From: an uncultured Bacteroidales bacterium
GTDB taxonomy: Bacteria > Bacteroidota > Bacteroidia > Bacteroidales > UBA932
Direction: 5' to 3'
DNA length: 42,029 nt
Assembly (NCBI GenBank): GCA_905233345.1
Contig: CAJODQ010000022.1
Location: 1-42,029 of the forward strand
Below, piece after piece: positions 66-28,141 of this stretch (within the stretch, counting starts at the first letter, position 1; every line of letters begins with the position of its first letter). The notes under the pieces were generated by a model. That model saw only the letters and a program-made list of their open reading frames with translations. It was not told the DNA's origin and ran no database searches. A program made the translations under genes and the position numbers.

Positions 66-83
66 GGCATAAAAACTATAAAA

Positions 84-3923: not shown

Positions 3924-3929
3924 AGGGGA

Positions 3930-3954
3930 GGTGCCGGTCTTAATGGCCGGCACC
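3930..3954 (+). terminator. Hairpin terminator after the ORF6N gene
   Basis: GGTGCCGG (3930-3937) pairs with CCGGCACC (3947-3954) around a 9-base loop and is followed by ATTATGTTTTC. It fits an intrinsic terminator of the rightward ORF6N transcript. The rest of 3955-4069 shows only a short CGGG/CCCG hairpin at 3971-3982. Confidence 0.55.
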
Positions 3955-4069
3955 ATTATGTTTTCGGTGACGGGTGTTCCCGGATGGCCATTATTGTAAG
4001 GGTATCCTGCGGGGTTCCTTCGCGCACACGTCGGCACTGACAATCAACCCGTAATTCTAAAAAACGCCA

Positions 4070-11692: not shown

Positions 11693-13390
11693 ATGACAAG
11701 AATTCTTTCAACCAATATTACTTCTCCCCTGGGCCTGACAACCGAGGAAAACTATGCAGCGGTCAAGCGCGGCGAAACGAGTCTGCAGCAGATGGACGGC
11801 TGCCTGGGTGTTCCGGGGCACTTTTGCGTCGGCATCTTCCCGGAAGACCGGCGCGCCGCCCTGCGGGTGGACGGGTTCAGTTGGTTTGAGTCGCTGGTGC
11901 TCCATTCCGTGCAGGACGCCCTGGCCCGCAGTGCCGTCGATCCGGCTTCTCCGCGGACGATCTTTGTCCTGGGCACTTCCACGGCCGGCATCGACGAACT
12001 GGGCGATGTTCCCGAAAAAGACAGAAACTATCTCGCGCCCGGCGTGGCCGTGAAGAAGGTCGCAGACAAGTTGGGCTTTGTCAACGATCCCATTACGGTC
12101 AGCAACGCCTGCATCTCCGGCGCGACGGCGCAAATGCTGGCCGACCGGCTCATCGCAGCAGGCGATTATGACACGGCCGTAGTCTGCGGCGTAGATATCC
12201 TCTCGGCCTTTGTCCTGGCGGGCTTCGAGTCCCTGAAAGCCCTGTCTCCGACCCCCTGCCGGCCTTTCGACATTGAGCGCCTGGGCCTCAACATCGGAGA
12301 GTGCGCGGCAACGGTCGTACTTTCCCAAGACCTTCACGCAGACGCAGCGGCCTGGTATATCCAGGACGGCTGCCTCAACAACGACGCATACCATGTCAGT
12401 GCGCCCATCCCCAGCGGCGATGGCGTACGCCGCGCCATCCAAAAGATCCTGACCCCGGAGCTGAAGTCCACGCTGGCCTGCGTCGCGGCGCATGGCACCG
12501 CGACCATGTTCAACGACCAGATGGAATCCAAGGCCATCGAAGGGGCCGGGTTGGGCGACCTCCTGACCACCACGGTCAAGCCGCACTATGGGCACACGTT
12601 CGGCGCTTCCGGCGTCGTCGAGTCCATCATCATGATGTGCGCGCTGGATGAGGGGCTGATTCCGCCCACGCCCGGTTTTGAGGAAATGGGCGTCAGCGGA
12701 AAAATCCGCATCTGCAATCAGCCCGTAGCAACCGACAAGAAAGCCTTCATCAAGTTGCAGTCCGGTTTCGGCAGCTGCAACGGCGCGATGATCTACACCC
12801 AGACGCCCGCACCGGCAACCGTTCCTGCAAAAGCGGACTGCCAGACGGTCAGGCGCGTTCGCATCACGCCTGATGGCTTGTGGGTGGATGACCAGGCAGT
12901 CCCGCTCGAAAACCGCGGTTCCGCCCTCGTCTCGGAAATATTCAAAAAATACCTGGCGGACGGTTCCCGCTTCTACAAGATGGACTTGTACAGCCGGCTC
13001 GCCTATGTGGGTACGAGCCTCCTGGCCAAGGATGCGCTGGAAGCTTCCGATCCGGAAGACCGGGCGCTGATTATTTTCACGCAGAACGGCTCCGTCCTGG
13101 CCGACCGGAAGCATCTTTCCACCTTCGCCAATCCCGAAGAGTTCTTCCCCAGCCCGGCGGTCTTCATCAATACGTTGCCCAATGTCGTCCTGGGCGAAAT
13201 CGCCGTCAAGAACTGCATCAAGGGAGAAACCACGCTGGTGCTGCTGCCCGACAGGAATGAAGCCGTGCTGCAGCGCATCATCGACGCGACCGTGTCGGCG
13301 ACAAGGCCGTCCGTGCTGATCTGCGGTTGGGTGGACTGCGACGCCGAAGATTCTTTTATTGCCGATCTTAAAATGCTGAAAATCCAATGA
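11693..13390 (+). CDS. Beta-ketoacyl synthase with C-terminal KS-like extension
   Basis: The 565-residue protein carries a FabF-type ketosynthase in residues 1-375 with the full triad: Cys140 (SNACISG), His267 (AAHGTA) and His301 (KPHYGHTFGASG). It should condense malonyl units onto the growing chain on a carrier protein. Residues about 390-565 are a second domain (SRLAYVGTSLL, FFPSPAVFINTLPN, VLGEIAVKN). I know this as a separate small '3-oxoacyl-ACP synthase-like' protein in flexirubin/aryl-polyene clusters. It lacks ketosynthase catalytic residues and may help pairing or chain-length control. First gene of a five-gene operon; overlaps the next by 4 bases. Confidence 0.85.
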   Translation: MTRILSTNITSPLGLTTEENYAAVKRGETSLQQMDGCLGVPGHFCVGIFPEDRRAALRVDGFSWFESLVLHSVQDALARSAVDPASPRTIFVLGTSTAGIDELGDVPEKDRNYLAPGVAVKKVADKLGFVNDPITVSNACISGATAQMLADRLIAAGDYDTAVVCGVDILSAFVLAGFESLKALSPTPCRPFDIERLGLNIGECAATVVLSQDLHADAAAWYIQDGCLNNDAYHVSAPIPSGDGVRRAIQKILTPELKSTLACVAAHGTATMFNDQMESKAIEGAGLGDLLTTTVKPHYGHTFGASGVVESIIMMCALDEGLIPPTPGFEEMGVSGKIRICNQPVATDKKAFIKLQSGFGSCNGAMIYTQTPAPATVPAKADCQTVRRVRITPDGLWVDDQAVPLENRGSALVSEIFKKYLADGSRFYKMDLYSRLAYVGTSLLAKDALEASDPEDRALIIFTQNGSVLADRKHLSTFANPEEFFPSPAVFINTLPNVVLGEIAVKNCIKGETTLVLLPDRNEAVLQRIIDATVSATRPSVLICGWVDCDAEDSFIADLKMLKIQ

Positions 13391-15111
13391 AAAAGATGAG
13401 TGGAACGATCTCGGTGACCGGCATGGGCATTCTCTGTGCCATCGGCAACAACCAAACGGAAGTGCTGACCTCCCTGCGGAACAAGGCATCGGGCATCGGC
13501 CGGATGAAGTATCTCCCGTCGGTCCATACGGATATCCCGGTCGGCGAAATCAAACTGTCGACCGAGGAAATGAAGCAGATGCTGGGGATTCCCAGCGAAG
13601 AGACGGTCAGCCGGACCTCCGTCATGGGCGCGATCGCCGTCCGGGAAGCCTTGCAACAGGCCGGCATCAACGATGTCTCCGGAAAAAGGGTTGCGCTGAT
13701 TTCCGGAACCACCGTGGGTGTGATGGATGTGACGGAGCAGGTTTTTGAGCAAACAGGTATCGATCCCGAACTGCAGGGCATGCCCCACAGTCATGAATGT
13801 GGTCAGAGCACCCTGGAGATCGCCCGGTATTCGGGCCTGCAGGGCGCCCGGTGCTGCACCATCTGCACCGCCTGCTCCTCGGCCCTGAATGCCATCATGA
13901 TCGGCTCCGAGATGCTGAAGAACGATGAGGTCGACCTGGTGGTCGCCGGTGGTTCGGAGCCCTTGAGCAAACTGCATCTGAACGGATTCAATACGCTGAT
14001 GATCCTGGACCGGGAACGCTGCCGCCCCTTCGACGAAACACGGGCCGGCTTGAACCTGGGCGAGGGTGCGGCCTACGTCGTGCTGCAAAAAGACGTACCG
14101 TGCGGCTTGGCTTATGTCCGCGGCTATGCGAACCGCTGTGACGCTTTCCACCAGACGGCAACTTCCAAGAATGGAGAGGGTGCCACGCTCGCCATGACTG
14201 GTGCCCTCCGGATGGCGGGATTGCAGCCGAAAGACATCCAGTACATCAATGCCCATGGCACGGGCACGCCCGACAACGATGCCTCCGAGAGCGCCGCGTT
14301 CAAACGTGTGTTCGGCGCTGATCTGCCGGACATGTCCAGCACCAAGTCCTATACCGGGCATACCACTTCCGCCGCCGGCTCTGTCGAGACGGTCATCTGC
14401 CTCCTGGCCATGGAGAATGACTTTGTGCCCGCCTCGCTCGGATGGCAGCATCCCATGCCGGACGGCGTCATCCCTTCCCCGGGACGCACGGGCGTCAAGC
14501 TGGACGATGTCATGTGCAATTCCTTCGGTTTCGGAGGAAACGATTCGTCCCTGATTCTCAGCAAATCCCAACCCCTGGCGGACGAACAGCCCCTGCTGGA
14601 CGAGTCCCGGATCCACGTCGCTGCACAAAGCACGGTTTCCAGCGAAGAGGAACTCAGCGGATTGCGGGAATTTCTGCCGCCCATGGAGACCCGGCGCATG
14701 AGCAAAATGATGAAAGCCAGCCTCTTGTCTGCCTTTACGGCCCTGCGGGAAGCCGGGATCGAGCGGCCCGATGCGATCATCGCAGCCACTGCGAAAGGAA
14801 TGCTTGAACTGAGCACCATCTTCCTGGAAGATATCGTCAACAACCAGGAACAACAGCTCAAGCCGACCGTGTTCATGCAGAGCACGCACAACACCATCGC
14901 TTCCGCCATTGCCATCCAGACGCAGTGCCACGGATACAATATCACCTACTCCCAGGGAGACGAATCTGCTGCCTGGGCCGTCCGGGACGCGAAGATGCTC
15001 CTGCGGAAAGGCGAAGCCCGGAACGTCCTGGTCTGCGCTTTCGATGAAGCACTGACGGAAGGAAGAACAAGCCGTTTCAAGGCGGAAAGTACGATTTATA
15101 CCCTTGCCTGA
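13387..15111 (+). CDS. Beta-ketoacyl synthase fused to a chain-length-factor-like domain
   Basis: The 574-residue protein has an N-terminal FabF-type ketosynthase (about 1-415) with Cys163 (CTACSS), His290 (NAHGTGT) and His325 (KSYTGHTTSAAG), all intact. The C-terminal part (about 425-574) contains RRMSKMMKASLLSA and MQSTHNTIASAIAIQTQCHG. Those phrases are typical of the beta-ketoacyl synthase chain length factor proteins (Ketoacyl-synt_2) found separately in aryl-polyene and flexirubin clusters. KS:CLF pairs set polyene length in those pathways, so this is a probable one-chain version. Met4 is an alternative start. ATGA overlap with the previous gene suggests translational coupling. Confidence 0.85.
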   Translation: MKKMSGTISVTGMGILCAIGNNQTEVLTSLRNKASGIGRMKYLPSVHTDIPVGEIKLSTEEMKQMLGIPSEETVSRTSVMGAIAVREALQQAGINDVSGKRVALISGTTVGVMDVTEQVFEQTGIDPELQGMPHSHECGQSTLEIARYSGLQGARCCTICTACSSALNAIMIGSEMLKNDEVDLVVAGGSEPLSKLHLNGFNTLMILDRERCRPFDETRAGLNLGEGAAYVVLQKDVPCGLAYVRGYANRCDAFHQTATSKNGEGATLAMTGALRMAGLQPKDIQYINAHGTGTPDNDASESAAFKRVFGADLPDMSSTKSYTGHTTSAAGSVETVICLLAMENDFVPASLGWQHPMPDGVIPSPGRTGVKLDDVMCNSFGFGGNDSSLILSKSQPLADEQPLLDESRIHVAAQSTVSSEEELSGLREFLPPMETRRMSKMMKASLLSAFTALREAGIERPDAIIAATAKGMLELSTIFLEDIVNNQEQQLKPTVFMQSTHNTIASAIAIQTQCHGYNITYSQGDESAAWAVRDAKMLLRKGEARNVLVCAFDEALTEGRTSRFKAESTIYTLA

Positions 15112-15112
15112 G

Positions 15113-15904
15113 ATGTCCGCCGATAACTGGTTTCTGAAGATACTCCTTTTCCCGGTGAAGGCCGTGAAAACGGTGCTGATCTTTCTTCTATACATCGTTT
15201 TCATGCTGGTCTTTGTGACGCCCGGCGCATTCATTTACCTGAAATGCGGAAAGCGGTCAGAAAAAAAGAAAGAGAATCTTCACAAGTTTATCTGCTGGTG
15301 CGCCCATTTCGGCATATCACTATTCGGCCTGTTCGGGAACAAATTTACGTTTGCGGGGCGGACGGATGAAGATTTTTCCCGCCCTGCCCTCATCACCTGC
15401 AACCACCAGTCGCACCTGGACCTGCTGGCCATGCTGGCCCTGACACCCAGGCTGGTGATCCTGACCGCAGACTGGGTATGGCACAATCCGCTCTATGGCT
15501 TCATCATCCGAGAAGCCGATTTCCTGCCGGCATCAAAGGGCCTCGATGCCATCGCCCCGCGCTTGCGCGAATTGGTTGACAAAGGATACAGCATTGCCGT
15601 GTATCCCGAGAGTACACGTTCGCTGGACGGCAGTATCGGCCGCTTCCACCAGGGCGCATTCTATCTGGCGGATCAACTGAACGTGGACATCCTTCCCGTC
15701 ATCCTCTATGGAGCGGGAAAAGCACTCCCCAAGCATGGCCGTCTGCTCAACCGGGGACCCATTCGGCTGGAAATCGATAAACGAATCACGCCGGAAGAAA
15801 TGAAGACCCATGGAGATACGTATATGGCCCAGGCTTCTTACCTGCGGAAATATTACATTTCCCGCTATGCCGAGGTAGCAGAAAAAGTCGAACAGGCACA
15901 ATGA
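15113..15904 (+). CDS. Membrane-anchored PlsC-type acyltransferase
   Basis: The 263-residue protein has an N-terminal transmembrane segment (about 18-42), then the acyltransferase motifs NHQSHLD (His98-X4-Asp103) and YPESTRSLDG. It should transfer the polyene or another acyl chain to a lipid acceptor at the inner membrane. The ATG directly follows the previous stop (TGAGATG). The frame is open upstream to a TTG at 15104, which I reject as the start. The next gene encodes the MMPL exporter. In other Bacteroidota an acyltransferase domain of this kind is fused inside that exporter, which supports a joint role. Confidence 0.88.
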   Translation: MSADNWFLKILLFPVKAVKTVLIFLLYIVFMLVFVTPGAFIYLKCGKRSEKKKENLHKFICWCAHFGISLFGLFGNKFTFAGRTDEDFSRPALITCNHQSHLDLLAMLALTPRLVILTADWVWHNPLYGFIIREADFLPASKGLDAIAPRLRELVDKGYSIAVYPESTRSLDGSIGRFHQGAFYLADQLNVDILPVILYGAGKALPKHGRLLNRGPIRLEIDKRITPEEMKTHGDTYMAQASYLRKYYISRYAEVAEKVEQAQ

Positions 15905-15917
15905 GGACATGCAAGCC

Positions 15918-18683
15918 ATGAAAATCACGGACATCTATGATTTCTTTTCCCGGAACCGGAGTATCCGGAGGATATCCCTCATCGTGCTCTCCGTCCTTTT
16001 TGCCGCTTTGCTGATCAAACTGGATTTCAGCGAGGACATCAGTGATTTCCTGCCGCTCGGGACGCGGGAACGGGAGCAGATGTCCATCTATCAAAACATC
16101 GCCGGTGCTGACAAACTGTTGATCCTGTTCTCCAATCCCGGGGATGCCGACCATACGGTCGAGGCCATCGACTGCTTCGTCAACACCGCTCTGGAACAGG
16201 ATACCAAAGGTTGGTGCGCGCAACTGAGCGCCCAGATCGACATGGACGCGATATCCGGTGTTTCAGACTTTGTCTATGAACATATTCCCTACTTTCTGAC
16301 TGAGCGCGACATCGCAAGGATGGACAGCCTGCTGGCCGAACCCGGGTATATTCCCGAAGCGCTGGCAAGAGACAAGCAGGTGCTTATGTTCCCGCACCCG
16401 GTCCTCGTCACGAAAAGCATCGCCCATGATCCGCTGGGGCTCTTCAGCCCGGTAATGGACCGGCTTCAGGCTTCCTCGAGCCAGGAGGGCTTTGAACTGT
16501 ATGACGGCTATATCTTCACGCCGGACATGAGCCGGGCCGTCGTGATGATGGATTCTCCCTTTGGAAGCAGCGAGACGAGCAACAACGCCAAACTCCTCAA
16601 CTACCTGGAGGATATCGCTCTGCAGATGCAGGAACAGTATCCGGACGTCAGCGTCGATCTGATCGGGGGTCCGGCCATCGCGGTCGGAAACGCATCCCGA
16701 ATCAAGAAGGACAGCATGCTGGCCATCGCCCTTTCCGTCATTCTGATCATCCTGATCCTGGCCTATTCGTTCAGCTCATTCCGGAACATCCTGCTGATCT
16801 TCCTGACCGTCGGATGGGGCCTGCTCTTTGCCCTGGGCGGCATGGCGCTGTTCCGCGACAGCGTGTCGATCATCGTCATCGGGATTTCCAGCGTCATCAT
16901 CGGCATTGCGATCAATTATCCCCTGCACCTGGTTTCCCACCTGGCCTACCAGCCGGACCGGCGGTTGGCGATGAAAGAGATTGCGACGCCGCTGGTGGTC
17001 GGAAATATCACGACGGTCGGCGCTTTCCTGGCACTCGTCCCGCTTAAATCGACGGCCCTGCGCGACCTGGGAATCTTCGCCTCCCTGCTCCTTGTCGGAA
17101 CCATCCTGTTCGTGCTCCTGTACCTGCCGCATTATGTGACCAGCAAGCAGGGAAGAAAGCGCCGAAACGGCCGTCTCATCGAATATCTCTCTTCGCTTTC
17201 GCCGGAAAAACATCGCGGCATCGTCGTCGGCACGGTCATCATCACCCTCGTCCTGCTGTATTTCAGTTTCCATACGGAATTTGATTCCGACATGGCGCAC
17301 ATGAACTATATGACGGCGAATCAAAAGCGGGAGATGCAGTATTTCGAGGACCTGATGACCAAAGATGTCTCGCATACGGCCCAGAGCCTGTATGTTTACG
17401 GGAGCGGCCGCACGTTTGACGAGGCCTTGCAAAACATGGAGCAGAACGTGGCGCTCGTGGACAGCCTGTCATCGGTCGGTTTCCTGACGAAGCAGAACGA
17501 AGTCCTGTCCTTCATGACGACAAAAGAGGAGCAAGCGCAGCGGCTGATGCGTTGGAGCCGTTTTGTCGATCGCCATCGCGATGAAATGACAGGGGTTTTT
17601 CAGGAAGAGGCCCGGAAGGCCGGCTTCGCGCCCGCTGCTTTTGCCGCTTTCAACCAATTGATCGCATCTACGTCGTCTTTTGCCACGCAGAACCTGGATT
17701 ATTTCGAGCCCCTGCTGCAGACCGTTTTCAGTCAGAATTTTGCCAGCTCCGAAGACAACGAAACAACCTATGTGGTGAGTCCGGTCAATATTCAGGCGGA
17801 AAGCCTGGAAGAAGCGAAAGCGATCTTCGGCGACCATTGTTTCGATATCGGCGGCATCAACCAATCCATGACCCGCAGCCTTTCCGACAATTTCAATTAC
17901 ATCGGATGGGCATGTTCCCTGATCGTGTTCATCTTCCTCTGGTTTTCTTTCGGACGAATTGAACTGGCCATCATCTCCTTCCTTCCGATGGCCATCAGCT
18001 GGGTATGGATCCTGGGCATCATGGCCTTGCTGGGCATCAAGTTCAATATCGTCAATATCATCCTGGCAACCTTCATATTCGGTCAGGGAGACGATTATAC
18101 CATCTTCATGACCGAGGGCTGCCAGTTTGAATATTCGCGGGAGCGGTCCATTCTCAAGTCATATAAGAGCAGCATCCTGCAATCAGGCGCCATCATGTTT
18201 GTCGGCATCGGCACACTGATCGTCGCCAAGCATCCCGCCATGCATTCCCTGGCGGAAGTGACCATCATCGGCATGTTCTCCGTCGTGCTGATGGCCTACC
18301 TGGTTCCTCCTTTCCTGTTCAATGTCCTGACCAGAAAGAACGGGCAGGTGCGCCCGCAGCCCATTACGTTGAAAACGCTCATCCTGGGGCAGCCCAAAGA
18401 CCTGGCCGCCCGCGTGCAAGGCCGTTATACCTACAAGGGAAAAGAGATCGAGCGCTGTGTACGGCGCCATCTGAACGAAAGCGCCGGAACGATCATCAAC
18501 CGGGATGTGGCGGGACAGCAATCCGTGGGCTACCGCGATGAAGGATACGGGGAGTTGGCCCTGCTGCTGGCCCTGTCGCATCCGGAAATAACCGTGGTGG
18601 CACACATTGCCGACGAAGAACGGCGGCAGATTGCCACCGTTGCATGCAAAGGTATCGTAGACAATATTATTATTCAAAGTTAA
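15918..18683 (+). CDS. MMPL-family RND exporter with C-terminal methyltransferase-like domain
   Basis: The protein of about 921 residues has two repeats of one helix, a periplasmic domain and five further helices, as in MMPL/HAE2-type lipid exporters. It probably carries the finished lipid-linked polyene out of the inner membrane, with the LolA-like protein in the opposite operon. The last 110 residues (from about PKDLAARVQGRYTYKG) look like a shortened class I methyltransferase. The stretch YGELALLLALSHP resembles the SAM-binding strand-loop-helix, but the glycine-rich loop is degraded (DEGYGE) and no catalytic residues are apparent. ATG at 15909 is also possible; I prefer 15918 because AGGA sits 10 bases upstream. 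Confidence 0.85.
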   Translation: MKITDIYDFFSRNRSIRRISLIVLSVLFAALLIKLDFSEDISDFLPLGTREREQMSIYQNIAGADKLLILFSNPGDADHTVEAIDCFVNTALEQDTKGWCAQLSAQIDMDAISGVSDFVYEHIPYFLTERDIARMDSLLAEPGYIPEALARDKQVLMFPHPVLVTKSIAHDPLGLFSPVMDRLQASSSQEGFELYDGYIFTPDMSRAVVMMDSPFGSSETSNNAKLLNYLEDIALQMQEQYPDVSVDLIGGPAIAVGNASRIKKDSMLAIALSVILIILILAYSFSSFRNILLIFLTVGWGLLFALGGMALFRDSVSIIVIGISSVIIGIAINYPLHLVSHLAYQPDRRLAMKEIATPLVVGNITTVGAFLALVPLKSTALRDLGIFASLLLVGTILFVLLYLPHYVTSKQGRKRRNGRLIEYLSSLSPEKHRGIVVGTVIITLVLLYFSFHTEFDSDMAHMNYMTANQKREMQYFEDLMTKDVSHTAQSLYVYGSGRTFDEALQNMEQNVALVDSLSSVGFLTKQNEVLSFMTTKEEQAQRLMRWSRFVDRHRDEMTGVFQEEARKAGFAPAAFAAFNQLIASTSSFATQNLDYFEPLLQTVFSQNFASSEDNETTYVVSPVNIQAESLEEAKAIFGDHCFDIGGINQSMTRSLSDNFNYIGWACSLIVFIFLWFSFGRIELAIISFLPMAISWVWILGIMALLGIKFNIVNIILATFIFGQGDDYTIFMTEGCQFEYSRERSILKSYKSSILQSGAIMFVGIGTLIVAKHPAMHSLAEVTIIGMFSVVLMAYLVPPFLFNVLTRKNGQVRPQPITLKTLILGQPKDLAARVQGRYTYKGKEIERCVRRHLNESAGTIINRDVAGQQSVGYRDEGYGELALLLALSHPEITVVAHIADEERRQIATVACKGIVDNIIIQS

Positions 18684-18689
18684 TAGATC

Positions 18690-21130: not shown

Positions 21131-21141
21131 ATCAGCGTATT

Positions 21142-21876
21142 TTATCGAATCAGTTTATGACACAACATGCTGGGATAGCCGTATACGATGGCCAGCACGC
21201 AGAGCAGCGTGTTCAGCACGCTGATGCGGAAAAAGTCGCGGAAAGGACGGAAACTCGACACCCGGTCTTCCGGATAGCAGACCCGGATGGCCACGGGCAC
21301 CAGTTCGATCCCTTTCCAGGCCGAGAACACCAGCAGCGTCAGCTCCGCCTCATAGCGGGATGTCAGGAGCCGAAGGCTTGGCAGCCGGTCGAGCGGATAG
21401 GCCCGGTAACCCGTCTGGGTATCGGGCAGGGAGTGCGCGGTCTGCGCCCGGAACCAGAAATTGGAGAAGCGGTTGGCGAAGGTATTGCCGCCCGGCATGT
21501 TCTCGGCTTCCAGGTTGCGGCTGCCCACGATCAGGGCGCCGGGATGCTGCGTGAGGGCCTCCACCAGCACCGGAATGTCTTCCGGGAAATGCTGGCCGTC
21601 GCCGTCGAGGGTGATGGCGTAGCGGAAGCCTTGCGTGCGCGCATACGTAAGCCCGGTGCGCAGGGCGTTGCCCTTGCCGCGGTTGCAGGGATGGGTCAAT
21701 ACGGTCAGCGGCAGATCGGACTGCGCCAGCAGCACGGCGGTTTCGTCGATACTGCCGTCGTTGACAACGACGACCGGGTAGCCCTGGGCCACGGCACGAC
21801 CGGCAACATCCAGGATGGTCCCGGCATTGTTGTATGTCGGGATGACGATGCAGATGCTACCGGCAGCGGCGTCCAT
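21142..21876 (-). CDS. GT2 family glycosyltransferase (DPM1-like)
   Basis: The 244-residue protein has the GT-A fold signature IVIPTYNNAGT near the N-terminus, VVNDGS (38-42), and the metal-binding DXD in LDGDGQH (90-96). The C-terminus has a hydrophobic segment suggesting membrane association. Such dolichyl-phosphate-mannose-synthase-like enzymes are standard members of aryl-polyene and flexirubin clusters, where they are thought to glycosylate the lipid anchor; the sugar donor is unknown. Its start overlaps the stop of the dehydratase-like gene (TAATG). Confidence 0.88.
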   Translation of the reverse strand: MDAAAGSICIVIPTYNNAGTILDVAGRAVAQGYPVVVVNDGSIDETAVLLAQSDLPLTVLTHPCNRGKGNALRTGLTYARTQGFRYAITLDGDGQHFPEDIPVLVEALTQHPGALIVGSRNLEAENMPGGNTFANRFSNFWFRAQTAHSLPDTQTGYRAYPLDRLPSLRLLTSRYEAELTLLVFSAWKGIELVPVAIRVCYPEDRVSSFRPFRDFFRISVLNTLLCVLAIVYGYPSMLCHKLIR

Positions 21877-22229
21877 TAGGGTTTCAGCGTCAATTTCATC
21901 CGGGAGCAGAGCGTCTCGCCGGACAGGATGTGCACCGACCAGACATCCGGCTGTTCGACCGGAAGCGGACGGGAATACTGGAACTCCAGTTCGGTGATTT
22001 CGGTCGGAAGGACAGGATAGACGAAACGGATGTCGGAGGCTTCCTCCACATCCAGGGCTTTCCCGACACTGGCGCCGACCAGTTCACAGGCCATCTGGAT
22101 CAGGCAGGCGCCGGGCGTTACCGGCATCCCTTTGAAGTGGGCCGCATAGATGGGGCTCTCGGGGAGCAGCCGGACCCGGGCCGATGTGGCCGAAATCAAC
22201 TGTACAGTATAGAGATAGTCTTTTAACAT
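21876..22229 (-). CDS. Hotdog-fold dehydratase, ApeI/FabZ-like
   Basis: A 117-residue single hotdog domain. The motif AHFKGMPVTPGACLIQMA aligns with HFPGxPVxPGxxxxEAMAQ of FabZ. The catalytic His is present (His31) but Gln45 stands where FabZ has Glu. It should remove water from 3-hydroxyacyl carrier intermediates to give the double bonds of the polyene. In studied aryl-polyene systems the dehydratase works as an ApeI:ApeP complex; the second hotdog protein here (23475-23915) would be the partner. Confidence 0.82.
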   Translation of the reverse strand: MLKDYLYTVQLISATSARVRLLPESPIYAAHFKGMPVTPGACLIQMACELVGASVGKALDVEEASDIRFVYPVLPTEITELEFQYSRPLPVEQPDVWSVHILSGETLCSRMKLTLKP

Positions 22230-22238
22230 AGGCTTGGT

Positions 22239-22832
22239 TTAGGGTTGCACGAAGATTTGGGGATCAAGGGCTTTTCCCCGGATGACCGCGCTGAATTCCA
22301 GCTGGGTTGTATCGCCGCCCTGCTCGGACAGCACCACGGAGCGCAATTCGCCCGTCCGGGCGTCGGTCAGCAGGGTGATGCGGTTGAAAAGCTGGCTCAG
22401 GTCGCGACGCAGGGGCTGCAGATCCACTTGCCAGCCCTGGGGCGAGGCATAGACCGTGACGACGAAATCCTCCTCATTGATCAGTCCTTTTTCGCCGAGC
22501 TTCTCGACATTGCGCAACAGGGTCTGCTGCCGCCGGTCACCTTTGTCCGTGCCGTTCATCACGAACAAGCTCTTCCAGGGCTGTTCCACTTCCCAGCGCA
22601 CCTTGTCGGGGTAGGCATAGGCGGCGTGACCGCGGCTCACGAGGTCTTCGGTCAGCATGGCGCTGTGGCGGGTCATCACGAAGCGGAACTGCAGGGTGGT
22701 CTTCAGGTCATTGGCCTGAAGAATGGTGGCGATGGCTTTGTCGCGCGCCGGACCTTCAAGCACTTGCGCGGTCTGCGCACGAAGCGGCAGGCAGCACAGG
22801 CTCAGGAGCAGGATCATGCAAAATCTTTTCAT
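22239..22832 (-). CDS. LolA-like periplasmic lipid carrier
   Basis: The 197-residue protein has a signal peptide ending at LRAQ and a LolA-type half-barrel (FRFVMTRHSAMLTEDLVSRG, YPDKVRWEV, VYASPQGWQVDL). Homologues of LolA are regular members of aryl-polyene clusters. They probably bind the lipid-linked polyene after the MMPL exporter and bring it to the outer membrane; this role is inferred from context. Spaced 7 and 9 bases from its neighbours in the operon. Confidence 0.87.
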   Translation of the reverse strand: MKRFCMILLLSLCCLPLRAQTAQVLEGPARDKAIATILQANDLKTTLQFRFVMTRHSAMLTEDLVSRGHAAYAYPDKVRWEVEQPWKSLFVMNGTDKGDRRQQTLLRNVEKLGEKGLINEEDFVVTVYASPQGWQVDLQPLRRDLSQLFNRITLLTDARTGELRSVVLSEQGGDTTQLEFSAVIRGKALDPQIFVQP

Positions 22833-22839
22833 GGCACTG

Positions 22840-23193
22840 TTATCTGACCATCAGCGCGGAGCCGGCCATGATGAGCAGGACGCCCAGCCACTGGCTCACG
22901 CTGACGTGTTCATGAAAGATCAGGATGGCAGCAATCGTGCCGAAAATGTAGCTGATGCTCGAAAGCGGGTAAGCGATGCTGAAAGGAAAGTGCTTGAGGA
23001 TGTACATCCACAGGACGGTTGCGACGCCGAAGAAGATGCCGCAGCCGAGAAACCACCAGTTGGTCAGCTGGGATTTAAAGAAGGCCCAGGACCAGCTGAA
23101 GGGACCGGATGCGGACAAGCCGAGTTTCAGCAGCACCTGGCCGCCGGCCAGGAAGAAACTCTGGATGATCGCCAGTGGTACGATTCGCCACAT
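22840..23193 (-). CDS. Small four-helix EamA/SMR-type permease
   Basis: A 117-residue protein made of four hydrophobic helices with the EamA/SMR pattern (GGQVLLKLGL in the first helix, PLSSISYIFGTIAAILIFHEH in the third and loop, WLGVLLIMAGSALM in the fourth). It resembles small multidrug-resistance and ArnE/ArnF-type flippases and would act as a homodimer or heterodimer. It may flip a lipid or a precursor for the pathway; the substrate is not evident. Confidence 0.82.
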   Translation of the reverse strand: MWRIVPLAIIQSFFLAGGQVLLKLGLSASGPFSWSWAFFKSQLTNWWFLGCGIFFGVATVLWMYILKHFPFSIAYPLSSISYIFGTIAAILIFHEHVSVSQWLGVLLIMAGSALMVR

Positions 23194-23201
23194 CTCCTGA
23201 A

Positions 23202-23462
23202 CTATTTCGTGCGGTGTTTCGACACGTAGTCAGCCATCACGGCCACCGACTGGAACACGGCTTTCCCTTCTGCCGGGTTGGAGAGCTTGATGCCATAGTT
23301 CTTCTCCATCAGCACGATGAGTTCCAAAACGTCGATCGAATCGAGGCCCAGGCCCTCGTCACCGAAAAGCGGAGCGTTGTCATCGATATCGGCCGGGGTC
23401 ATTTCCTCCAGGTTCAGTGCGCTGATGATCTGCGCTTTAATTTCTTCTATCAGTTCTTTCAT
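23202..23462 (-). CDS. Acyl carrier protein
   Basis: An 86-residue four-helix carrier with the phosphopantetheine attachment serine at Ser42 in GLGLDSIDVLEL. It carries the growing chain between ketosynthase, reductase and dehydratase. It sits beside the ApeP-like dehydratase and is one of two free carriers in this operon; a third carrier domain is fused to the ligase at 18690. Confidence 0.92.
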   Translation of the reverse strand: MKELIEEIKAQIISALNLEEMTPADIDDNAPLFGDEGLGLDSIDVLELIVLMEKNYGIKLSNPAEGKAVFQSVAVMADYVSKHRTK

Positions 23463-23474
23463 AGCTGTACTTTG

Positions 23475-23915
23475 TTATTCGTCAATCTCTTTGTCGCTGC
23501 TGGCGGTCTTGATGGCCGCCGTGGCGATGAGTTCATCCTGGCAGCGCACCTCCACCTCGGTCAGCGTGATGCCGAAGATATTCTCCCGGAACTTCACCGT
23601 GGTTTCGAGCAATTCACCGCACCGCGGATGCCGGTATACCTTGAGTTTGCGGACGCTGCCGATATAGCCGATGGTCACGGGAATGTGCAGGACGTAGCGG
23701 GCGATGTAGCCAACCCGCGCCGCGCTCGACTGGGCCATGTGCTCTACCAGACCGCCCGTCGCAAAACGGCCGTTCTCCACGAAGATGCCTTTTTCGGGAA
23801 TCCGGAAGGACGTGCGTGTGCACTCTTCCTCGTGGTGCAGGAGATGGTCCACGAACACGAAAGGCGGACGCTGCGGAAGCAGGTATTCGATCGGAATCTG
23901 GTCAAAAGGGATCAT
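23475..23915 (-). CDS. Hotdog-fold dehydratase, ApeP-like
   Basis: A 146-residue hotdog protein beginning with LLPQRPPFVFVD, the entry motif of FabA/FabZ-type enzymes, then TGGLVEHMAQ. The acidic catalytic residue is present (Glu58), but the usual active-site His position is replaced in the ENGRFATGG stretch. This is the mirror image of the other hotdog protein at 21876-22229, which keeps His but lacks the Glu. ATG at 23915 is the start; it overlaps the stop of the upstream acyltransferase gene as ATGA. An upstream in-frame TTG at 23921 is less likely. Confidence 0.83.
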   Translation of the reverse strand: MIPFDQIPIEYLLPQRPPFVFVDHLLHHEEECTRTSFRIPEKGIFVENGRFATGGLVEHMAQSSAARVGYIARYVLHIPVTIGYIGSVRKLKVYRHPRCGELLETTVKFRENIFGITLTEVEVRCQDELIATAAIKTASSDKEIDE

Positions 23916-24802
23916 TTCCAAAAATCATAAAAATTAAACCATTGCGTGGGATACTTGCGGACCACGCTTTCCAAACAGGTGGCGAATTCCTTCGCCATCG
24001 CCTCGGCGCGGACGCGCGCGGGCAGCGCCTCGTCGAGTTTCTCGCCGATCTGCCGGACGAAGACCGTGTAACGGCGCACGCTTTCCTTCATCACGAACAC
24101 GGCCACCATCGCAACGGAGCGCTGGGCCGCCAGGATGAAAGGTCCGGCCGGAAACGGGGCGGGATCGCCGAAAAAAGGGCAGGAGAACGTCTTTTGCGAT
24201 CCGAACACCCGGTCTCCCGGCATGCTCACGATGCCCCCTTCGCTCAGGATGGCATTCAGCGTGAACAGGTGGGACATGTCGTCGGAAACAGGCACCATCT
24301 CGACGTTCATCCGGGCGAACATGGCGGCGCGCTGTTGCATCACCGTATCGGTCTCGCCGGAGAACACCAGGGTCCCCATCTTTTTGACCGAGCGAAGCAG
24401 ATAACCCGCGATTTCGAAGTTCCCCGCGTGGGAGCCCAGCTGCATGAAGCCCGGCTCTGCTTCCGCCAGCCGCGTGAAAACCGGCATCTCGTCACTCTGC
24501 AGATCGAATGAGCGTCCTGCATACAGCGCGAAGCGGTCTACCACGACCTGCCCCATGCGGAATTCGTTGGCATAGACGCTGAAAAACGAAGCAAGCGGCC
24601 CCCGCCCGATGCGGTGCCGGAAAAAGTTGTAGGAAGCCTTGTAGCCGCGACGGTCAAAGAGCATATAGAACGGAATGACCGGAGCCATGCACGCGTATGC
24701 CAACGGGAGGGGCAGGAAGCGGAAAAGCTTCAACATAGCCCGCTGCATCCACGTAGTGCCACCGGTCGAGCCGTGCCATTTGCTATGGTCGTACTGCGTC
24801 AA
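23912..24802 (-). CDS. LpxL/HtrB-like acyltransferase
   Basis: The 296-residue protein has the family's N-terminal WHGSTGGTTW motif, a membrane segment (about 30-50), and the catalytic GSHAGNFE (His125-X4-Glu130) of lauroyl/myristoyl acyltransferases. It likely joins the polyene acyl chain to a lipid or sugar acceptor on the inner leaflet. The first ATG in frame would remove the conserved WxG motif, so I use the TTG at 24802, 6 bases after the carrier-protein stop, with AGAGG just upstream. Confidence 0.82.
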   Translation of the reverse strand: MTQYDHSKWHGSTGGTTWMQRAMLKLFRFLPLPLAYACMAPVIPFYMLFDRRGYKASYNFFRHRIGRGPLASFFSVYANEFRMGQVVVDRFALYAGRSFDLQSDEMPVFTRLAEAEPGFMQLGSHAGNFEIAGYLLRSVKKMGTLVFSGETDTVMQQRAAMFARMNVEMVPVSDDMSHLFTLNAILSEGGIVSMPGDRVFGSQKTFSCPFFGDPAPFPAGPFILAAQRSVAMVAVFVMKESVRRYTVFVRQIGEKLDEALPARVRAEAMAKEFATCLESVVRKYPTQWFNFYDFWK

Positions 24803-24808
24803 GCCTCT

Positions 24809-25042
24809 TTATCCGACTTTTTCCGTGATGTAGTCAACGAACTGTCCGAACGTCTTGATATCCTTGAATTCTTCCGATTTCATCTTGAAACCGAACTCGC
24901 GTTCCACGAATACCACGGTATCCACAACTTCCAGGCTGTCGATGCCCATATCCTCTTTCAGGCGGGCATCCGGGGTGATTTTTGCCGGATTGATTTCCAT
25001 CTCGTCGACCAGGAAATTCTTGATTCTTTCTTCGATAGTCAT
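24809..25042 (-). CDS. Acyl carrier protein
   Basis: A 77-residue carrier with the attachment serine at Ser36 in MGIDSLEVVD. First gene of the nine-gene leftward operon, with a -7 box about 50 bases upstream at 25091-25098. It probably serves elongation together with the carrier at 23202. Confidence 0.93.
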   Translation of the reverse strand: MTIEERIKNFLVDEMEINPAKITPDARLKEDMGIDSLEVVDTVVFVEREFGFKMKSEEFKDIKTFGQFVDYITEKVG

Positions 25043-25090
25043 TTCTGTAAAATTTAGATTTTTAGTATATTTTCAAAGTTATTAAGACGA

Positions 25091-25098
25091 CAAAGATA
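25091..25098 (-). promoter_or_regulatory. TAnnTTTG -7 box of the leftward biosynthetic operon
   Basis: On the minus strand this reads TATCTTTG, 48 bases before the ATG at 25042. It starts the nine-gene operon 25042-20207. The same ten bases (CAAAGATACT) recur at 25150-25159. Confidence 0.6.
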
Positions 25099-25128
25099 CT
25101 CATTATTATTTATAAATCCGAAAATTGC

Positions 25129-25158
25129 GTATCTTTGCGCGACTTAAACCAAAGATAC
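25129..25158 (+). promoter_or_regulatory. -7 box of the rightward KS-oxidoreductase-KR operon within an inverted repeat
   Basis: TATCTTTG (25130-25137) lies 28 bases before the ATG at 25166. It is the left half of a perfect 9-base inverted repeat, GTATCTTTG (25129-25137) and CAAAGATAC (25150-25158). The right half falls in the predicted 5' leader. The repeat could be a regulator site, an RNA hairpin, or simply a second leftward -7 box. Confidence 0.55.
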
Positions 25159-25165
25159 TGAACAC

Positions 25166-26389
25166 ATGGACAGACGTGTCGTCATAACTGGTATGGGTAT
25201 TTGGTCGTGCCTGGGAACGACCCTCGATGAGGTTCGTGACTCCCTGTACACCGGAAAATCCGGCATCATCCTCGACCCCGCCCGCAAAGAAATGGGCTTC
25301 CGCTCCGGCCTTACCGGCTACGTGCCCACCCCCGAACTGAAAGGTGAACTTCCCCGCTCCCAGCGGGTCTATATGCCCGAACCGGCCCAATACGCCTATT
25401 GCGCCACCCGTGACGCCCTGCAGCAGGCCCGCATCGATGCGGACTTCCTGGCGGCCAACGAAATCGGCATCCTTTACGGCAACGACAGTACGGCCGACGC
25501 CGTGTATAAGTCGGTTTCGACCATCCACGAGAAAAAAGATACGATGCTCTGCGGCTCGGGTGCCATCTTCCAGTCGATGAACTCCACCGTGACGATGAAC
25601 CTGAGTGTGATCTTCAAGCTCAAGGGCATCAACCTCACCGTGTCGGGTGCCTGCGCCAGCGGTTCCCACGCCATCGGCCTCGGCGCCCTGCTGATCCGCA
25701 ACGGCCTCCAGGACATCGTGGTCTGCGGCGGTGCCCAGGAAGTCAACGCAGCCGCCACCGGCTCGTTCGACGGCATTTCCGCCTTCTCCGTCCGCGAAGA
25801 CGCGCCTGAAAAAGCCAGCCGTCCGTTCGACCGCGACCGCGACGGCCTCGTCCCGGGCGGCGGTGCAGCTACCGTCATCCTCGAGAGCTACGAATCGGCC
25901 GTCCGCCGCGGCGCTCCCATCATCGCCGAAGTGCTGGGCTACGGCTTCTCGAGCAACGGCGAGCACATCTCCAACCCCAACGTCGACGGTCCCCGCCGTG
26001 CGCTGGAGCGCTCGATCCAACAGGCCGGCCTGGCCATCGACCAGATCGGTTACATCAACGCCCACGCCACTTCCACGCATGTGGGTGACACCAACGAGGC
26101 CAAGGCCATCTACGCCGTCATCGGCGACCACCGCATCCCTGTGACCAGCACCAAGAGCCAGACGGGACACGAGATGTGGATGGCCGGTGCCAGCGAGATC
26201 GTCTATTCCATTCTCATGATGAAGCACGATTTCATCGGCGCCAACATCAACTTTGAAAATCCCGACGAGGACTCCGCCAAGCTGTTTATCCTGCCTGAAC
26301 GGATGTCCTGCCACTTCGATACCTTCCTGTCGAACTCCTTCGGATTCGGCGGTACCAACTCTTCGCTGGTCATCCGCGACATCCGCTAG
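25166..26389 (+). CDS. Beta-ketoacyl synthase (FabF/FabB-type)
   Basis: A 407-residue ketosynthase with Cys163 (SGACASGSHA), His300 (NAHATSTH) and His335 (KSQTGHEMW), and normal family length without extra domains. It is the third ketosynthase of the cluster and the only one of plain FabF/FabB form. It may be the initiating or general elongating enzyme, like ApeR or ApeO in aryl-polyene systems; which of the two cannot be told here. First of a three-gene operon; the next start codon is 1 base after its stop. Confidence 0.9.
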   Translation: MDRRVVITGMGIWSCLGTTLDEVRDSLYTGKSGIILDPARKEMGFRSGLTGYVPTPELKGELPRSQRVYMPEPAQYAYCATRDALQQARIDADFLAANEIGILYGNDSTADAVYKSVSTIHEKKDTMLCGSGAIFQSMNSTVTMNLSVIFKLKGINLTVSGACASGSHAIGLGALLIRNGLQDIVVCGGAQEVNAAATGSFDGISAFSVREDAPEKASRPFDRDRDGLVPGGGAATVILESYESAVRRGAPIIAEVLGYGFSSNGEHISNPNVDGPRRALERSIQQAGLAIDQIGYINAHATSTHVGDTNEAKAIYAVIGDHRIPVTSTKSQTGHEMWMAGASEIVYSILMMKHDFIGANINFENPDEDSAKLFILPERMSCHFDTFLSNSFGFGGTNSSLVIRDIR

Positions 26390-26390
26390 C

Positions 26391-27416
26391 ATGGCCGGCC
26401 GGCAAGTCATCATCATCGGCGCCGGACTGGGTGGCCTGATGTGCGGAAGAATCCTCTCCCGCCAAGGCTACACTGTCACCATCCTGGAACAGGGCACACA
26501 AGCCGGCGGTGCTTTGCAGACTTTCGTCCGCGACGGCATCCGCTTCGATACCGGCTTCCACTCTGTCGGCGGACTGGAGCCCGGTGAGCCACTCGATCTG
26601 ATTTTCCGCCGGCTCGACCTGCGCAACCTTCCCTGGTTCCGCATGGAGCCCGATGAATGCATCGGTTGCGACGAGCCCTTCTTCCGCCTCTCAACGGGTT
26701 GGGAGGAGGAGCGCAAGCACGTGCTGGATCCCTACCGGCACAGTATCTGGCGCCTGAAGGGCGGTGGAAAAACCCTGATCGACGCGCTGGCGGAAGGCCA
26801 GCAGGTCCTGCTCCGCAAGAAGGTCACGGCCATCGAAGACCGGACGGTTTTCTGTGCCGACGGCAGCAGCTATCAAGGCGACGTTGTCATCTCTGCCATT
26901 CATCCGCAGGTGACGTTCCGCATGGTCCGGGACCACGTCCGTCCCTCCTACCTGCAGCGTCTCGATACCCTGACCAACGGTCCCGGCGCGTTCACCGTCT
27001 ATGCCAAGTTGCAGCCCGAAACAATCCGGCACATCCGGCACAGCATCTTTGTCGACAACGATTTCATGATCCACTTCGGCGATGAGGTCGAAAACGGCTT
27101 CGCCCTTTCGCTCGATATCGTAACGTTCCGGGCTTCTTCCGCTGAAGATCTCATCCGGAAAGCCGCCGTGCGGCTGCCCGGCCTGCCGGAAGCCATCGAG
27201 AAATACTGGACCAGTTCCCCGAAAACCTGGGAACGCTATACCGGTACGCCCGGCGGCACCGCCTACGGCATCCGTAAAAACAGCACCGCCGATTTCCTGG
27301 CTCCCCATACGCCGATTCCCTGGCTCTTCCTGACCGGTCAGAATCTGGGCCTGCACGGCATCCTGGGAACCTCCATTTCGGCTTTCAACACTTGTAACTC
27401 CATCTCCCTGCTATGA
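26391..27416 (+). CDS. FAD-dependent oxidoreductase (phytoene-desaturase-like)
   Basis: The 341-residue protein has an N-terminal dinucleotide fold (IIIGAGLGGLMCGRIL, then LEQGTQAGGALQTF) and a C-terminal FAD-contact stretch (LFLTGQNLGLHGILGTSISA), as in CrtI-type desaturases and related amine oxidases. Members of this family occur in flexirubin and related polyene clusters, where they may desaturate or isomerise the chain; the reaction has not been fixed by sequence. The start is the ATG directly after the ketosynthase stop. It overlaps the reductase gene by 4 bases. Confidence 0.85.
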   Translation: MAGRQVIIIGAGLGGLMCGRILSRQGYTVTILEQGTQAGGALQTFVRDGIRFDTGFHSVGGLEPGEPLDLIFRRLDLRNLPWFRMEPDECIGCDEPFFRLSTGWEEERKHVLDPYRHSIWRLKGGGKTLIDALAEGQQVLLRKKVTAIEDRTVFCADGSSYQGDVVISAIHPQVTFRMVRDHVRPSYLQRLDTLTNGPGAFTVYAKLQPETIRHIRHSIFVDNDFMIHFGDEVENGFALSLDIVTFRASSAEDLIRKAAVRLPGLPEAIEKYWTSSPKTWERYTGTPGGTAYGIRKNSTADFLAPHTPIPWLFLTGQNLGLHGILGTSISAFNTCNSISLL

Positions 27417-28141
27417 ACTACGCACTCGTTACCGGCGGCAGCCGGGGCATCGGCCGCGCAGCCAGCCTCCGCCTCGCAGCACAGGGCTTCGCCATCCTGA
27501 TCAACTATGTGTCCAACGAACAGAAAGCCCGCGAAACGGCCGACCTGGTCGCCGCTGCCGGCGGCACGGCCGAACTCCTGAAGTTCGACGTGGCGAACGC
27601 AGAAGAGACGGCCGCCGTGCTCGGCGGCTGGATGCAGGCGCATCCCGATGATTTCATCGAAGTGCTGGTCAACAATGCGGGGATCCGCCGCGACGGCCTG
27701 CTCATCTGGACAGAACCGGACGACTGGCACAAGGTGGTCAACACGACGCTCGACGGTTTCTACAATGTGACGCGCCCGCTCCTGCAGCCCATGCTGCTGA
27801 AGAAACGCGGCCGCATCATCAACGTCGCTTCGCTCTCCGGCCTGAAAGGCATGGCGGGCCAGACGAACTACTCGGCGGCCAAAGGCGGCCTGATCGCCGC
27901 CACGAAGGCGCTCGCCCAGGAAGTCGGCCGCAAAAAAGTGACGGTCAATGCCATCGCCCCGGGCTTCGTAAAGACGGACATGGTCGACGGCCTCGATGAG
28001 GATACCCTCAAGAAAGACATTCCGCTGCAGCGCTTCGGCGAGCCGGAAGAAGTGGCCGCCCTGATCGGCTTCCTCGCCTCCCCCGAAGCCGCCTACATCA
28101 CCGGCGAATGCATCTCCATCAACGGAGGGTTGTATTCGTAA
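27413..28141 (+). CDS. 3-oxoacyl-ACP reductase (FabG-type SDR)
   Basis: A 242-residue short-chain dehydrogenase with TGGSRGIGRA for NADPH binding, NNAG, the catalytic Tyr153-X3-Lys157 (NYSAAKGG), and FVKTDM and the C-terminal YITGECISINGG typical of FabG. It reduces the 3-keto group after each condensation in the polyene cycle. Last gene of the three-gene operon, overlapping the oxidoreductase gene by 4 bases (ATGA). A palindromic repeat follows. Confidence 0.92.
   Translation: MNYALVTGGSRGIGRAASLRLAAQGFAILINYVSNEQKARETADLVAAAGGTAELLKFDVANAEETAAVLGGWMQAHPDDFIEVLVNNAGIRRDGLLIWTEPDDWHKVVNTTLDGFYNVTRPLLQPMLLKKRGRIINVASLSGLKGMAGQTNYSAAKGGLIAATKALAQEVGRKKVTVNAIAPGFVKTDMVDGLDEDTLKKDIPLQRFGEPEEVAALIGFLASPEAAYITGECISINGGLYS

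What the first reader, a model, noticed from the sequence alone, without database searches (positions are those of the whole stretch)
11693..28141. Compact aryl-polyene-like cluster without an aromatic starter supply
Three ketosynthases, a ketoreductase, two hotdog dehydratases, two carriers plus a carrier-ligase, three candidate acyltransferases with the divergent gene, GT2, LolA-like, MMPL and permease genes match the aryl-polyene/flexirubin logic. No ammonia-lyase, chorismate lyase, DarB-type synthase or thioesterase is present. A phytoene-desaturase-like oxidoreductase and an exported esterase are in the operons. The starter acid and product may differ from known aryl polyenes.
Basis: partly seen in the sequence, partly recalled or inferred. 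Interest (0 to 1): 0.7.

Follow-up and report, generated by a model that had tools for sequence, protein, structure and literature searches.

The report
Polyene pigment cluster, swapped starter module
A gut bacterium with close relatives in the rumen carries a gene cluster for a flexirubin-like polyene pigment in which the usual tyrosine-derived starter genes are missing and a different acid-loading enzyme, fused to its own carrier protein, appears to stand in, so the pigment is probably begun from another, still unknown acid.

Summary
This is an aryl-polyene/flexirubin-type cluster: KR passes NCBI's FlxB cut-off, most genes match the E. coli ape cluster, and dN/dS is low for all 18 genes. FlxA (tyrosine ammonia-lyase), FlxY, FlxJ and thioesterase genes are absent from the window. 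In the genome (89% complete) the only ammonia-lyase hits are HutH and a near-copy, and no UbiC, Rv2949c-like lyase or chorismatase was found. Among 47 Bacteroidales genomes with the cluster's ketosynthase, FlxA-type lyase is in 34 of 43 without the window's ligase (LIG, with its own carrier) and in 0 of 4 with it; it is in 0 of 56 further LIG-bearing genomes. The ketosynthase tree needs three changes between the two states, but one origin is not rejected (AU p 0.06). Best reading: LIG loads a free, probably aromatic, acid onto its carrier in place of FlxA+FlxY. A cluster without a starter-making gene is not odd in itself (E. coli ape has none); the missing source in the genome and the module swap are the new part. 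Acid and product are unknown. New variant of a known kind.

The parts
10484..11617 (-). divergent acyltransferase (PF01553, weak), found in FlxA-type and LIG-type clusters (AT_div)
11693..13390 (+). KS1: ketosynthase with Cys-His-His and a C-terminal chain-length-factor-like domain (KS-CLF fusion)
13387..15111 (+). KS2: ApeO-like ketosynthase fused to ApeC-like chain-length factor (PF13723)
15104..15904 (+). lysophospholipid acyltransferase-like, ApeD-like (26%)
15909..18683 (+). MMPL/RND transporter, ApeM-like (21%)
18690..20225 (+). LIG: carrier domain (DSL motif) fused to an AMP-forming acid ligase; proposed starter-loading enzyme
20207..21130 (-). alpha/beta-hydrolase esterase (PF20434 BD-FAE) with an N-terminal signal-like stretch (read by eye); also in FlxA-type clusters
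21142..21876 (-). GT2 glycosyltransferase, matches N-terminal half of ApeJ
21876..22229 (-). hotdog dehydratase DH1, ApeI-like (weak)
22239..22832 (-). LolA-like carrier; best NCBIfam model LolA2_flexi, under cut-off
22840..23193 (-). SMR/EamA-type small permease (ArnE/ArnF-like)
23202..23462 (-). ACP1, ApeE-like (54% identity)
23475..23921 (-). hotdog dehydratase DH2, FabZ-like
23912..24802 (-). LpxL-like acyltransferase, matches C-terminal half of ApeJ
24809..25042 (-). ACP2, ApeF-like (39%)
25166..26389 (+). KS3, ApeR/FabB-like ketosynthase (35% to ApeR)
26391..27416 (+). short phytoene-desaturase-like FAD oxidoreductase (341 aa; homologues in L114, L125, L127 about 500 aa)
27413..28141 (+). 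KR; passes NCBIfam FlxB flexirubin SDR cut-off (392.8 vs 340 bits)

Best explanation
This is an aryl-polyene/flexirubin-type type II PKS whose initiation module has been exchanged. In the FlxA-type Bacteroidales form, tyrosine is expected to be deaminated by FlxA to 4-coumarate, which FlxY activates (as shown for C. pinensis). Here LIG adenylates a free carboxylic acid and loads it onto its own fused carrier domain, as ApeH is reported to load 4-hydroxybenzoate onto an ACP without a CoA step. Two KS-CLF fusions and KS3 then extend it with malonyl-ACP; KR and the hotdog dehydratases make the conjugated chain; GT2, the acyltransferases, LolA and MMPL attach it to a lipid and carry it to the outer membrane. 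The acid is most likely aromatic (inferred). Its source is unknown: the environment, or a route not recognised here. Shown by sequence: gene content, LIG/FlxA exclusion in the genomes tested, conservation. Inferred: every enzymatic step, the acid, the product.
For: Homology to E. coli ape genes one by one; KR over the FlxB cut-off. A relative's cluster (G101) carries FlxA, FlxY and FlxJ, all over NCBI cut-offs, around the same core. FlxA-type lyase in the genome: 34 of 43 LIG-negative and 0 of 4 LIG-positive among the 47 genomes (of 198 drawn) with the cluster KS (Fisher p 0.004); 0 of 8 further LIG-positive family members and 0 of 50 genomes out of the 80 LIG loci; 60 LIG-positive genomes after taking out two duplicates. 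LIG has its catalytic motifs, a DSL carrier motif and an AMP-ligase fold (pLDDT 89.9; first Foldseek hit a feruloyl-CoA synthetase). A FlxJ/ApeB-type methyltransferase stays with LIG in G025, G055, G111, G222 and G256, which speaks for an aryl starter there. Low dN/dS on all 18 genes.
Against: LIG resembles ApeH only weakly (E 5e-5; best BLAST piece 27% over 62 aa), and sequence and fold do not tell aryl from alkyl, amino or dicarboxylic acids. FlxJ, the main aryl hint, is missing from the window and from all 80 LIG loci; those reach only 10 kb to each side, but six of them include KS3. No acid source was found. Counts are not independent: only three phylogenetic pairs, and one origin of LIG is not rejected (AU p 0.0615). 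The 56 further LIG genomes were picked by LIG, not by the core: 6 of 80 loci show no other cluster gene and 64 show three or more kinds (50 tested: 1 and 44); G205 has only a LIG piece and G292/G314 only KS1 beside LIG. None of 11 other genus members drawn has LIG. Nine of 43 LIG-negative genomes also lack FlxA. The ApeR Tyr said to stack on the aryl group (PMC8358021 passages) is Ile/Val in both types, so KS3 does not discriminate.
Confidence: 0.7

Rival explanations
1. The starter is a fatty (non-aryl) acid: LIG is a fatty-acyl-ACP ligase and the product is an alkyl polyene, not an aryl polyene.
For: No aromatic acid source found in the genome by PF00221, PF04345, PF01947 or TIGR04444; no FlxJ in the window; LIG's best NCBIfam hit is a long-chain-fatty-acid--CoA ligase subfamily, far under its cut-off (190.8 vs 476).
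Against: Core enzymes match ape/flx; FlxJ-type methyltransferase kept with LIG in five relatives; first fold hit is a feruloyl-CoA synthetase, although fold alone decides little.
Confidence: 0.15
2. The starter is ordinary 4-coumarate or 4-hydroxybenzoate made by the cell itself through an enzyme missed here (the second HutH-like copy acting on tyrosine, a divergent chorismatase-like protein, or a gene lost from the 89%-complete assembly).
For: A second HutH-like gene at a contig end; C. pinensis FlxA looked HAL-like at one specificity motif yet is a TAL (PMC3992019); TIGR04444-related proteins, all under cut-off, in 7 of 18 LIG genomes, including the sister L110.
Against: The second copy is 93% identical to the hut-operon enzyme, which passes the hutH cut-off and not the FlxA one (600 vs 539; 338 vs 700 bits); 37 of 50 LIG genomes have no PF00221 hit at all; seven of the eight TIGR04444 places are one family (38-46% to the L209 protein), and the two of these scanned have only an L-PSP/Rid domain in Pfam; that family was in no cluster locus fetched, and 11 of 18 genomes, G000 included, have no hit.
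Confidence: 0.2
3. The cluster is a degraded flexirubin cluster that lost its starter genes and no longer makes a pigment.
For: FlxA, FlxY, FlxJ and thioesterase are missing; the desaturase-like gene is short.
Against: dN/dS 0.013-0.276 over all 18 genes in two comparisons; same compact set in L110, L111 and L112 and, as far as its contig reaches, in L116; LIG itself kept in the 80 listed loci.
Confidence: 0.03

Closest known systems
Flexirubin cluster of Chitinophaga pinensis (flxA-flxY) and the FlxA-bearing Bacteroidales clusters seen here
   Same: KR (FlxB equivalog), several ketosynthases, hotdog dehydratases, LolA-like, GT2, exporter and acyltransferases; the FlxA-bearing clusters of G101 and G185 share nearly all gene kinds of the window except LIG
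   Different: FlxA, FlxY, FlxJ and thioesterase absent; no DarB-level hit in the genome; ACP-fused class I AMP ligase instead of the PaaK-like FlxY
E. coli CFT073 aryl polyene cluster (apeA-R)
   Same: ApeR, ApeQ, ApeO-ApeC, ApeE, ApeF, ApeJ (as two genes), ApeD and ApeM counterparts, weaker ApeI and ApeL; a ligase and no starter-making gene in the cluster
   Different: second KS-CLF (KS1), desaturase-like gene, esterase, ligase fused to a third carrier; no ApeA, ApeB, ApeG, ApeK or ApeN counterpart in the window; no UbiC found in the genome
Xanthomonadin (recalled: chorismatase XanB2 supplies 3-hydroxybenzoate)
   Same: aryl polyene begun from an activated free acid (recalled)
   Different: no FkbO/Hyg5-family chorismatase found in the window's genome

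Membership tests
Aryl polyene (Ape-type) cluster | ApeO-ApeC KS-CLF plus ApeR-like KS | tested here: met
   KS2 = ApeO 33% + ApeC 29%; KS3 = ApeR 35%; Cys-His-His motifs present
Aryl polyene (Ape-type) cluster | KR and two ACPs of ape type | tested here: met
   ApeQ 47%, ApeE 54%, ApeF 39%
Aryl polyene (Ape-type) cluster | ApeI and ApeP dehydratases | tested here: inconclusive
   DH1 to ApeI E 0.0016; DH2 without a match to ApeP; both hotdog-like
Aryl polyene (Ape-type) cluster | ApeH-like acid ligase that loads an ACP | tested here: inconclusive
   E 5e-5 only; class I AMP ligase with fused carrier
Aryl polyene (Ape-type) cluster | 4-hydroxybenzoate source (UbiC) | tested here: not met
   PF04345 0 of 14 genomes, 11 of them LIG-positive; PF01947 0 of 18; TIGR04444 none in G000; MAG 89.4% complete
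Aryl polyene (Ape-type) cluster | aryl polyene product | not testable with these tools
   needs pigment chemistry
Flexirubin cluster | FlxB reductase | tested here: met
   392.8 bits against cut-off 340
Flexirubin cluster | FlxA tyrosine ammonia-lyase | tested here: not met
   only HutH-type in the genome
Flexirubin cluster | FlxY acyl-CoA ligase | tested here: not met
   no tblastn hit to G101's FlxY in the window; no NCBIfam FlxY match for LIG among the 25 best of 97 shown. The rest of the genome was not searched for FlxY
Flexirubin cluster | FlxJ-family methyltransferase | tested here: not met
   no tblastn hit in the window; present in relatives. The rest of the genome was not searched
Flexirubin cluster | DarA/DarB dialkylresorcinol genes | tested here: not met
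   3 KASIII hits in the genome: a FabH-like one beside a FabF-like gene, and two in another operon, one of which scores 33.6 bits against the DarB cut-off of 550. DarA was not searched for
Flexirubin cluster | LolA2 | tested here: inconclusive
   75.3 bits against cut-off 125

The most novel reading that the evidence does not exclude
LIG-type clusters make a diet-begun pigment: esterases free plant hydroxycinnamic or benzoic acids in the herbivore gut, and the carrier-loading ligase uses that scavenged acid as the polyene's head group, so the pigment's chemistry depends on the host's fodder. Hints: a feruloyl-esterase-like gene directly upstream of ACP-ligase in G025 and in 3 of the 80 LIG loci, and in none of the ten stretches fetched around FlxA-type clusters; 33 of 80 record titles name a ruminant or horse gut site and 24 more bear RUG-type names (rumen genomes, recalled). 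Against: the window itself lacks that gene, its own esterase also occurs in the FlxA-type clusters G101 and G185, and habitat was not tested against a background.
Probability: 0.25. Interest if true: 0.7.

Novelty: new variant of a known kind. Interest (0 to 1): 0.5.

Why it matters
[quoted passage not shown] A natural exchange of the starter module around one conserved core would show that head-group supply is modular, predicts head groups other than the tyrosine-derived one in gut bacteria, and gives a sequence marker (ACP-ligase versus FlxA+FlxY) by which clusters can be sorted before any chemistry. Named isolates with the ligase module exist: Prevotella sp. ne3005 (L169, with transporter, esterase, desaturase and acyltransferase genes beside it) and Segatella baroniae B14 (L188, where only KS1 lies near it); neither genome had a PF00221 hit.

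Tried and rejected
Second HutH copy as a cluster-serving TAL: 93% identical to the hut-operon HutH and at a contig end, so not favoured. Classing lyases by PF00221 bit score alone (as in my notebook entry, which gave 39 of 43): it overcounted FlxA-type enzymes, since several at 510-550 bits are neither FlxA nor HutH. I therefore compared 89 places by identity to FlxA of G101 (45% or more = FlxA-type) and to HutH (stretches fetched for those without loci). The 13 places over 590 bits were not fetched and were taken as not FlxA by score (no FlxA-type place scored over 560). G152, G170, G168, G114 and G047 dropped out of the FlxA-positive set; the first three were relabelled on the tree. G046 counts as positive by two partial contig-edge pieces, G119 by a 46% match. 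Chorismatase (TIGR04444) as starter source: 7 of 18 genomes hit, all under cut-off, G000 none; of three proteins scanned, the one of Parabacteroides (L205) has the FkbO/Hyg5 N-domain, the other two only L-PSP. ApeR aryl-stacking Tyr as an aryl/alkyl test: not informative (one search was the same script stopped by an error). LIG pocket: no ligand coordinates at hand; fold and profile hits span oxalate, malonate, ferulate, succinylbenzoate and D-Ala ligases. C3 KASIII pair with a LIG paralogue (29-31% identity) as a starter or resorcinol locus: it lies in what looks like a surface-sugar operon (by eye) and has no DarB-level hit. Habitat enrichment: not claimed, since the 80 loci are the best matches to the alignment and the collection is rich in ruminant MAGs.

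Literature: the listings showed no paper whose title or abstract start describes an ACP-ligase replacing FlxA/FlxY; one search found no paper at all. Subscription papers are mostly not held, and the in vitro Xenorhabdus ApeH work was seen only as cited by PMC8253772.
Full report
What is there. They form three runs: KS1-KS2-AGPAT-MMPL-LIG (+), ACP2 to esterase (-), and KS3-oxidoreductase-KR (+), with a divergent acyltransferase at 10484-11617. LIG and the esterase overlap by 19 bases at their 3' ends.

What kind of cluster. KR scores 392.8 bits against the NCBIfam FlxB cut-off of 340. Against the E. coli CFT073 ape cluster (L204), KS3 matches ApeR (35%), KR ApeQ (47%), ACP1 ApeE (54%), ACP2 ApeF (39%), GT2 and LpxL the two halves of ApeJ (34%, 29%), KS2 ApeO (33%) with its C-terminal part matching the ApeC chain-length factor (29%), and AGPAT, MMPL, LolA and DH1 match ApeD, ApeM, ApeL and ApeI more weakly; LIG matches ApeH at E 5e-5 only; DH2 found no match. 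The C-terminal part of KS1 is also chain-length-factor-like (HHalign 95.7% against that of KS2), so the window has two KS-CLF fusions. Cys-His-His motifs are present in all three KS. The window has no tblastn match at E 1e-3 to ApeA, ApeB, ApeG, ApeK, ApeN, nor to relatives' FlxA, FlxY, FlxJ or thioesterase.

Is it alive. Against L111 and L112, which hold the same compact set, dN/dS is 0.013 to 0.276 for all 18 genes in both comparisons. L110 (LIG 95% identical, rumen MAG) has the same order, and L116 has it as far as its contig reaches.

Starter supply. PF00221 finds two places in the genome: HutH (C24; 600 bits against the hutH cut-off of 539, 338 against the FlxA cut-off of 700) beside hutI (over cut-off) and a hutU relative (under cut-off), and a partial gene at the end of C18 that is 93% identical to it. 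UbiC (PF04345): 0 of 14 genomes, 11 of them LIG-positive and G000 included; the E. coli control rang. Rv2949c-like (PF01947): 0 of 18. Chorismatase (TIGR04444): none over cut-off in 18; weaker hits in 7, not in G000. KASIII: three hits, a FabH-like gene beside a FabF-like gene on C51 (its frame is broken near the end in the assembly) and two on C3 in another operon.

Relatives. Of 198 genomes of the order, 47, the window's own included, have a cluster-type KS2 hit (E 3e-67 or better; the rest lie at about 1e-46 or weaker). Clusters such as G101, G185, G108, G099 and G034 carry a lyase beside KR-KS3. In G101 that lyase, a ligase and a methyltransferase pass the NCBIfam cut-offs for FlxA, FlxY and FlxJ (833/700, 702/520, 596/560 bits). 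A FlxY-like gene (54% or more to that of G101) is in three of the four FlxA clusters with the far flank fetched (G101, G108, G185; not in the 28 kb of G099) and in none of the 80 LIG loci, where the single hit is 29% identical and outside the cluster genes.

Exclusion. LIG orthologues (43% identity or more, E 3e-108 or better) are in 4 of the 47: G000, G025, G055 and G111. PF00221 places were classed by identity to FlxA of G101 and to HutH (89 places; the 13 over 590 bits by score only). FlxA-type in the genome: 34 of 43 LIG-negative, 0 of 4 LIG-positive; the nine LIG-negative ones without it are G148, G123, G178, G018, G152, G170, G114, G168 and G047. Fisher p 0.004. In the window's family 9 of 149 genomes have LIG, the window's own among them and none of the 11 other genus members; of the eight others six have HutH-type and two nothing. 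A scan of the genome collection gave 359 relatives of LIG, of which 80 were kept; 50 of the 80 genomes were searched: 13 have HutH-type, 37 nothing, 0 FlxA-type. Two genomes occur twice (equal contig lengths: L160 with G269, L162 with G303), giving 0 of 60 in all. Limits: the last two sets were picked by LIG and not by the cluster core. Of the 80 loci 64 show three or more other kinds of cluster gene within the stretch held and 6 show none (44 and 1 of the 50 tested); G205 has a LIG piece only, G292 and G314 only KS1 and LIG. MAG incompleteness lowers lyase counts; G025 (99%) and G055 (98%) have no PF00221 hit at all.

Independence. On a tree of the KS2 N-domain (57 cluster rows plus ApeO) LIG versus FlxA needs three changes, with G111 and G222 nested among FlxA rows by starred branches. 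There are only three independent pairs (median sign test 0.25), and the AU test does not reject one LIG clade (p 0.0615). Three switches are therefore likely, not proven. The tree is the quick kind, rooted on a very long E. coli branch.

The ligase. A carrier with DSL motif is fused to LIG in the window and in 19 of 80 loci; in 56 of 80 a separate carrier-like ORF lies beside it. The model is good (mean pLDDT 89.9). The first Foldseek hit is a feruloyl-CoA synthetase (E 2e-36), closely followed by oxalate, malonate, succinylbenzoate and D-Ala ligases, so the substrate class is not settled. FlxJ/ApeB-type methyltransferases remain in the LIG clusters G025, G055, G111, G222 and G256, which argues for a phenolic head group there. 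None was found in the window or in the 80 LIG loci, six of which include KS3, the gene near which it lies elsewhere.

Comparison with what is known. C. pinensis FlxA and FlxY were shown in vitro to make and activate 4-coumarate (PMC3992019, part 1 of 2 of the results section read). E. coli ApeH is predicted to load 4-hydroxybenzoate from UbiC onto ACP, on the strength of in vitro work with the Xenorhabdus enzyme (PMC8253772, passages). ApeO-ApeC and ApeR roles: PMC8358021, passages. LolA2 in flexirubin loci: PMC11885536, passages. A flexirubin-like cluster in Bacteroides xylanisolvens has been noted (PMC12940132, passages). So the core is known. The exchange of FlxA+FlxY for an ACP-ligase was not seen in the listings.

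Verdict. Observation confirmed; interpretation partly supported. It works like an aryl polyene/flexirubin cluster with an ApeH-like initiation. As 'flexirubin' it fails the FlxA, FlxY, FlxJ and DarB tests. New variant of a known kind.

Noticed in passing
L193 8154-18133 (G000:C3): Operon with two KASIII genes, SDRs, split transketolase-like genes, a LIG paralogue (29-31% identity) and a LuxE/LuxC-like protein beside what look by eye like surface-sugar genes; a similar set with a LIG paralogue in G055:C63 (L196). Function unclear.
   Followed up: partly
L002 / L195, end of G000:C18: Second HutH-like gene, 93% identical to the hut-operon copy, cut by the contig end beside an ExbB/TolQ-like gene (by eye).
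   Followed up: partly
L206-L212: Family of proteins of about 350-430 aa with a C-terminal Rid/L-PSP domain, distantly related to FkbO/Hyg5 chorismatase, in several LIG-type genomes; role unknown.
   Followed up: partly
L095/L083, L097 (G292, G314); L188: Loci with only KS1 and the ligase among the cluster genes sought; in G292/G314 they lie in housekeeping surroundings like the window's flanks. The rest of the cluster was not looked for elsewhere in those genomes.
   Followed up: no
L034 7534-8880; L151, L168, L183: Feruloyl-esterase-like gene (in G025 far under the NCBIfam cut-off) directly upstream of the ACP-ligase pair.
   Followed up: partly
L191 780-1618 (G000:C51): FabH-like reading frame broken near its end in this assembly, next to a FabF-like gene; may be an assembly error.
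   Followed up: partly
window 1-4000: Left end of the window is lower in GC (0.45-0.46 against 0.55-0.62 elsewhere) and codes for a large repeat-bearing surface-type protein and an ORF6N-like protein (names by eye, not scanned).
   Followed up: no
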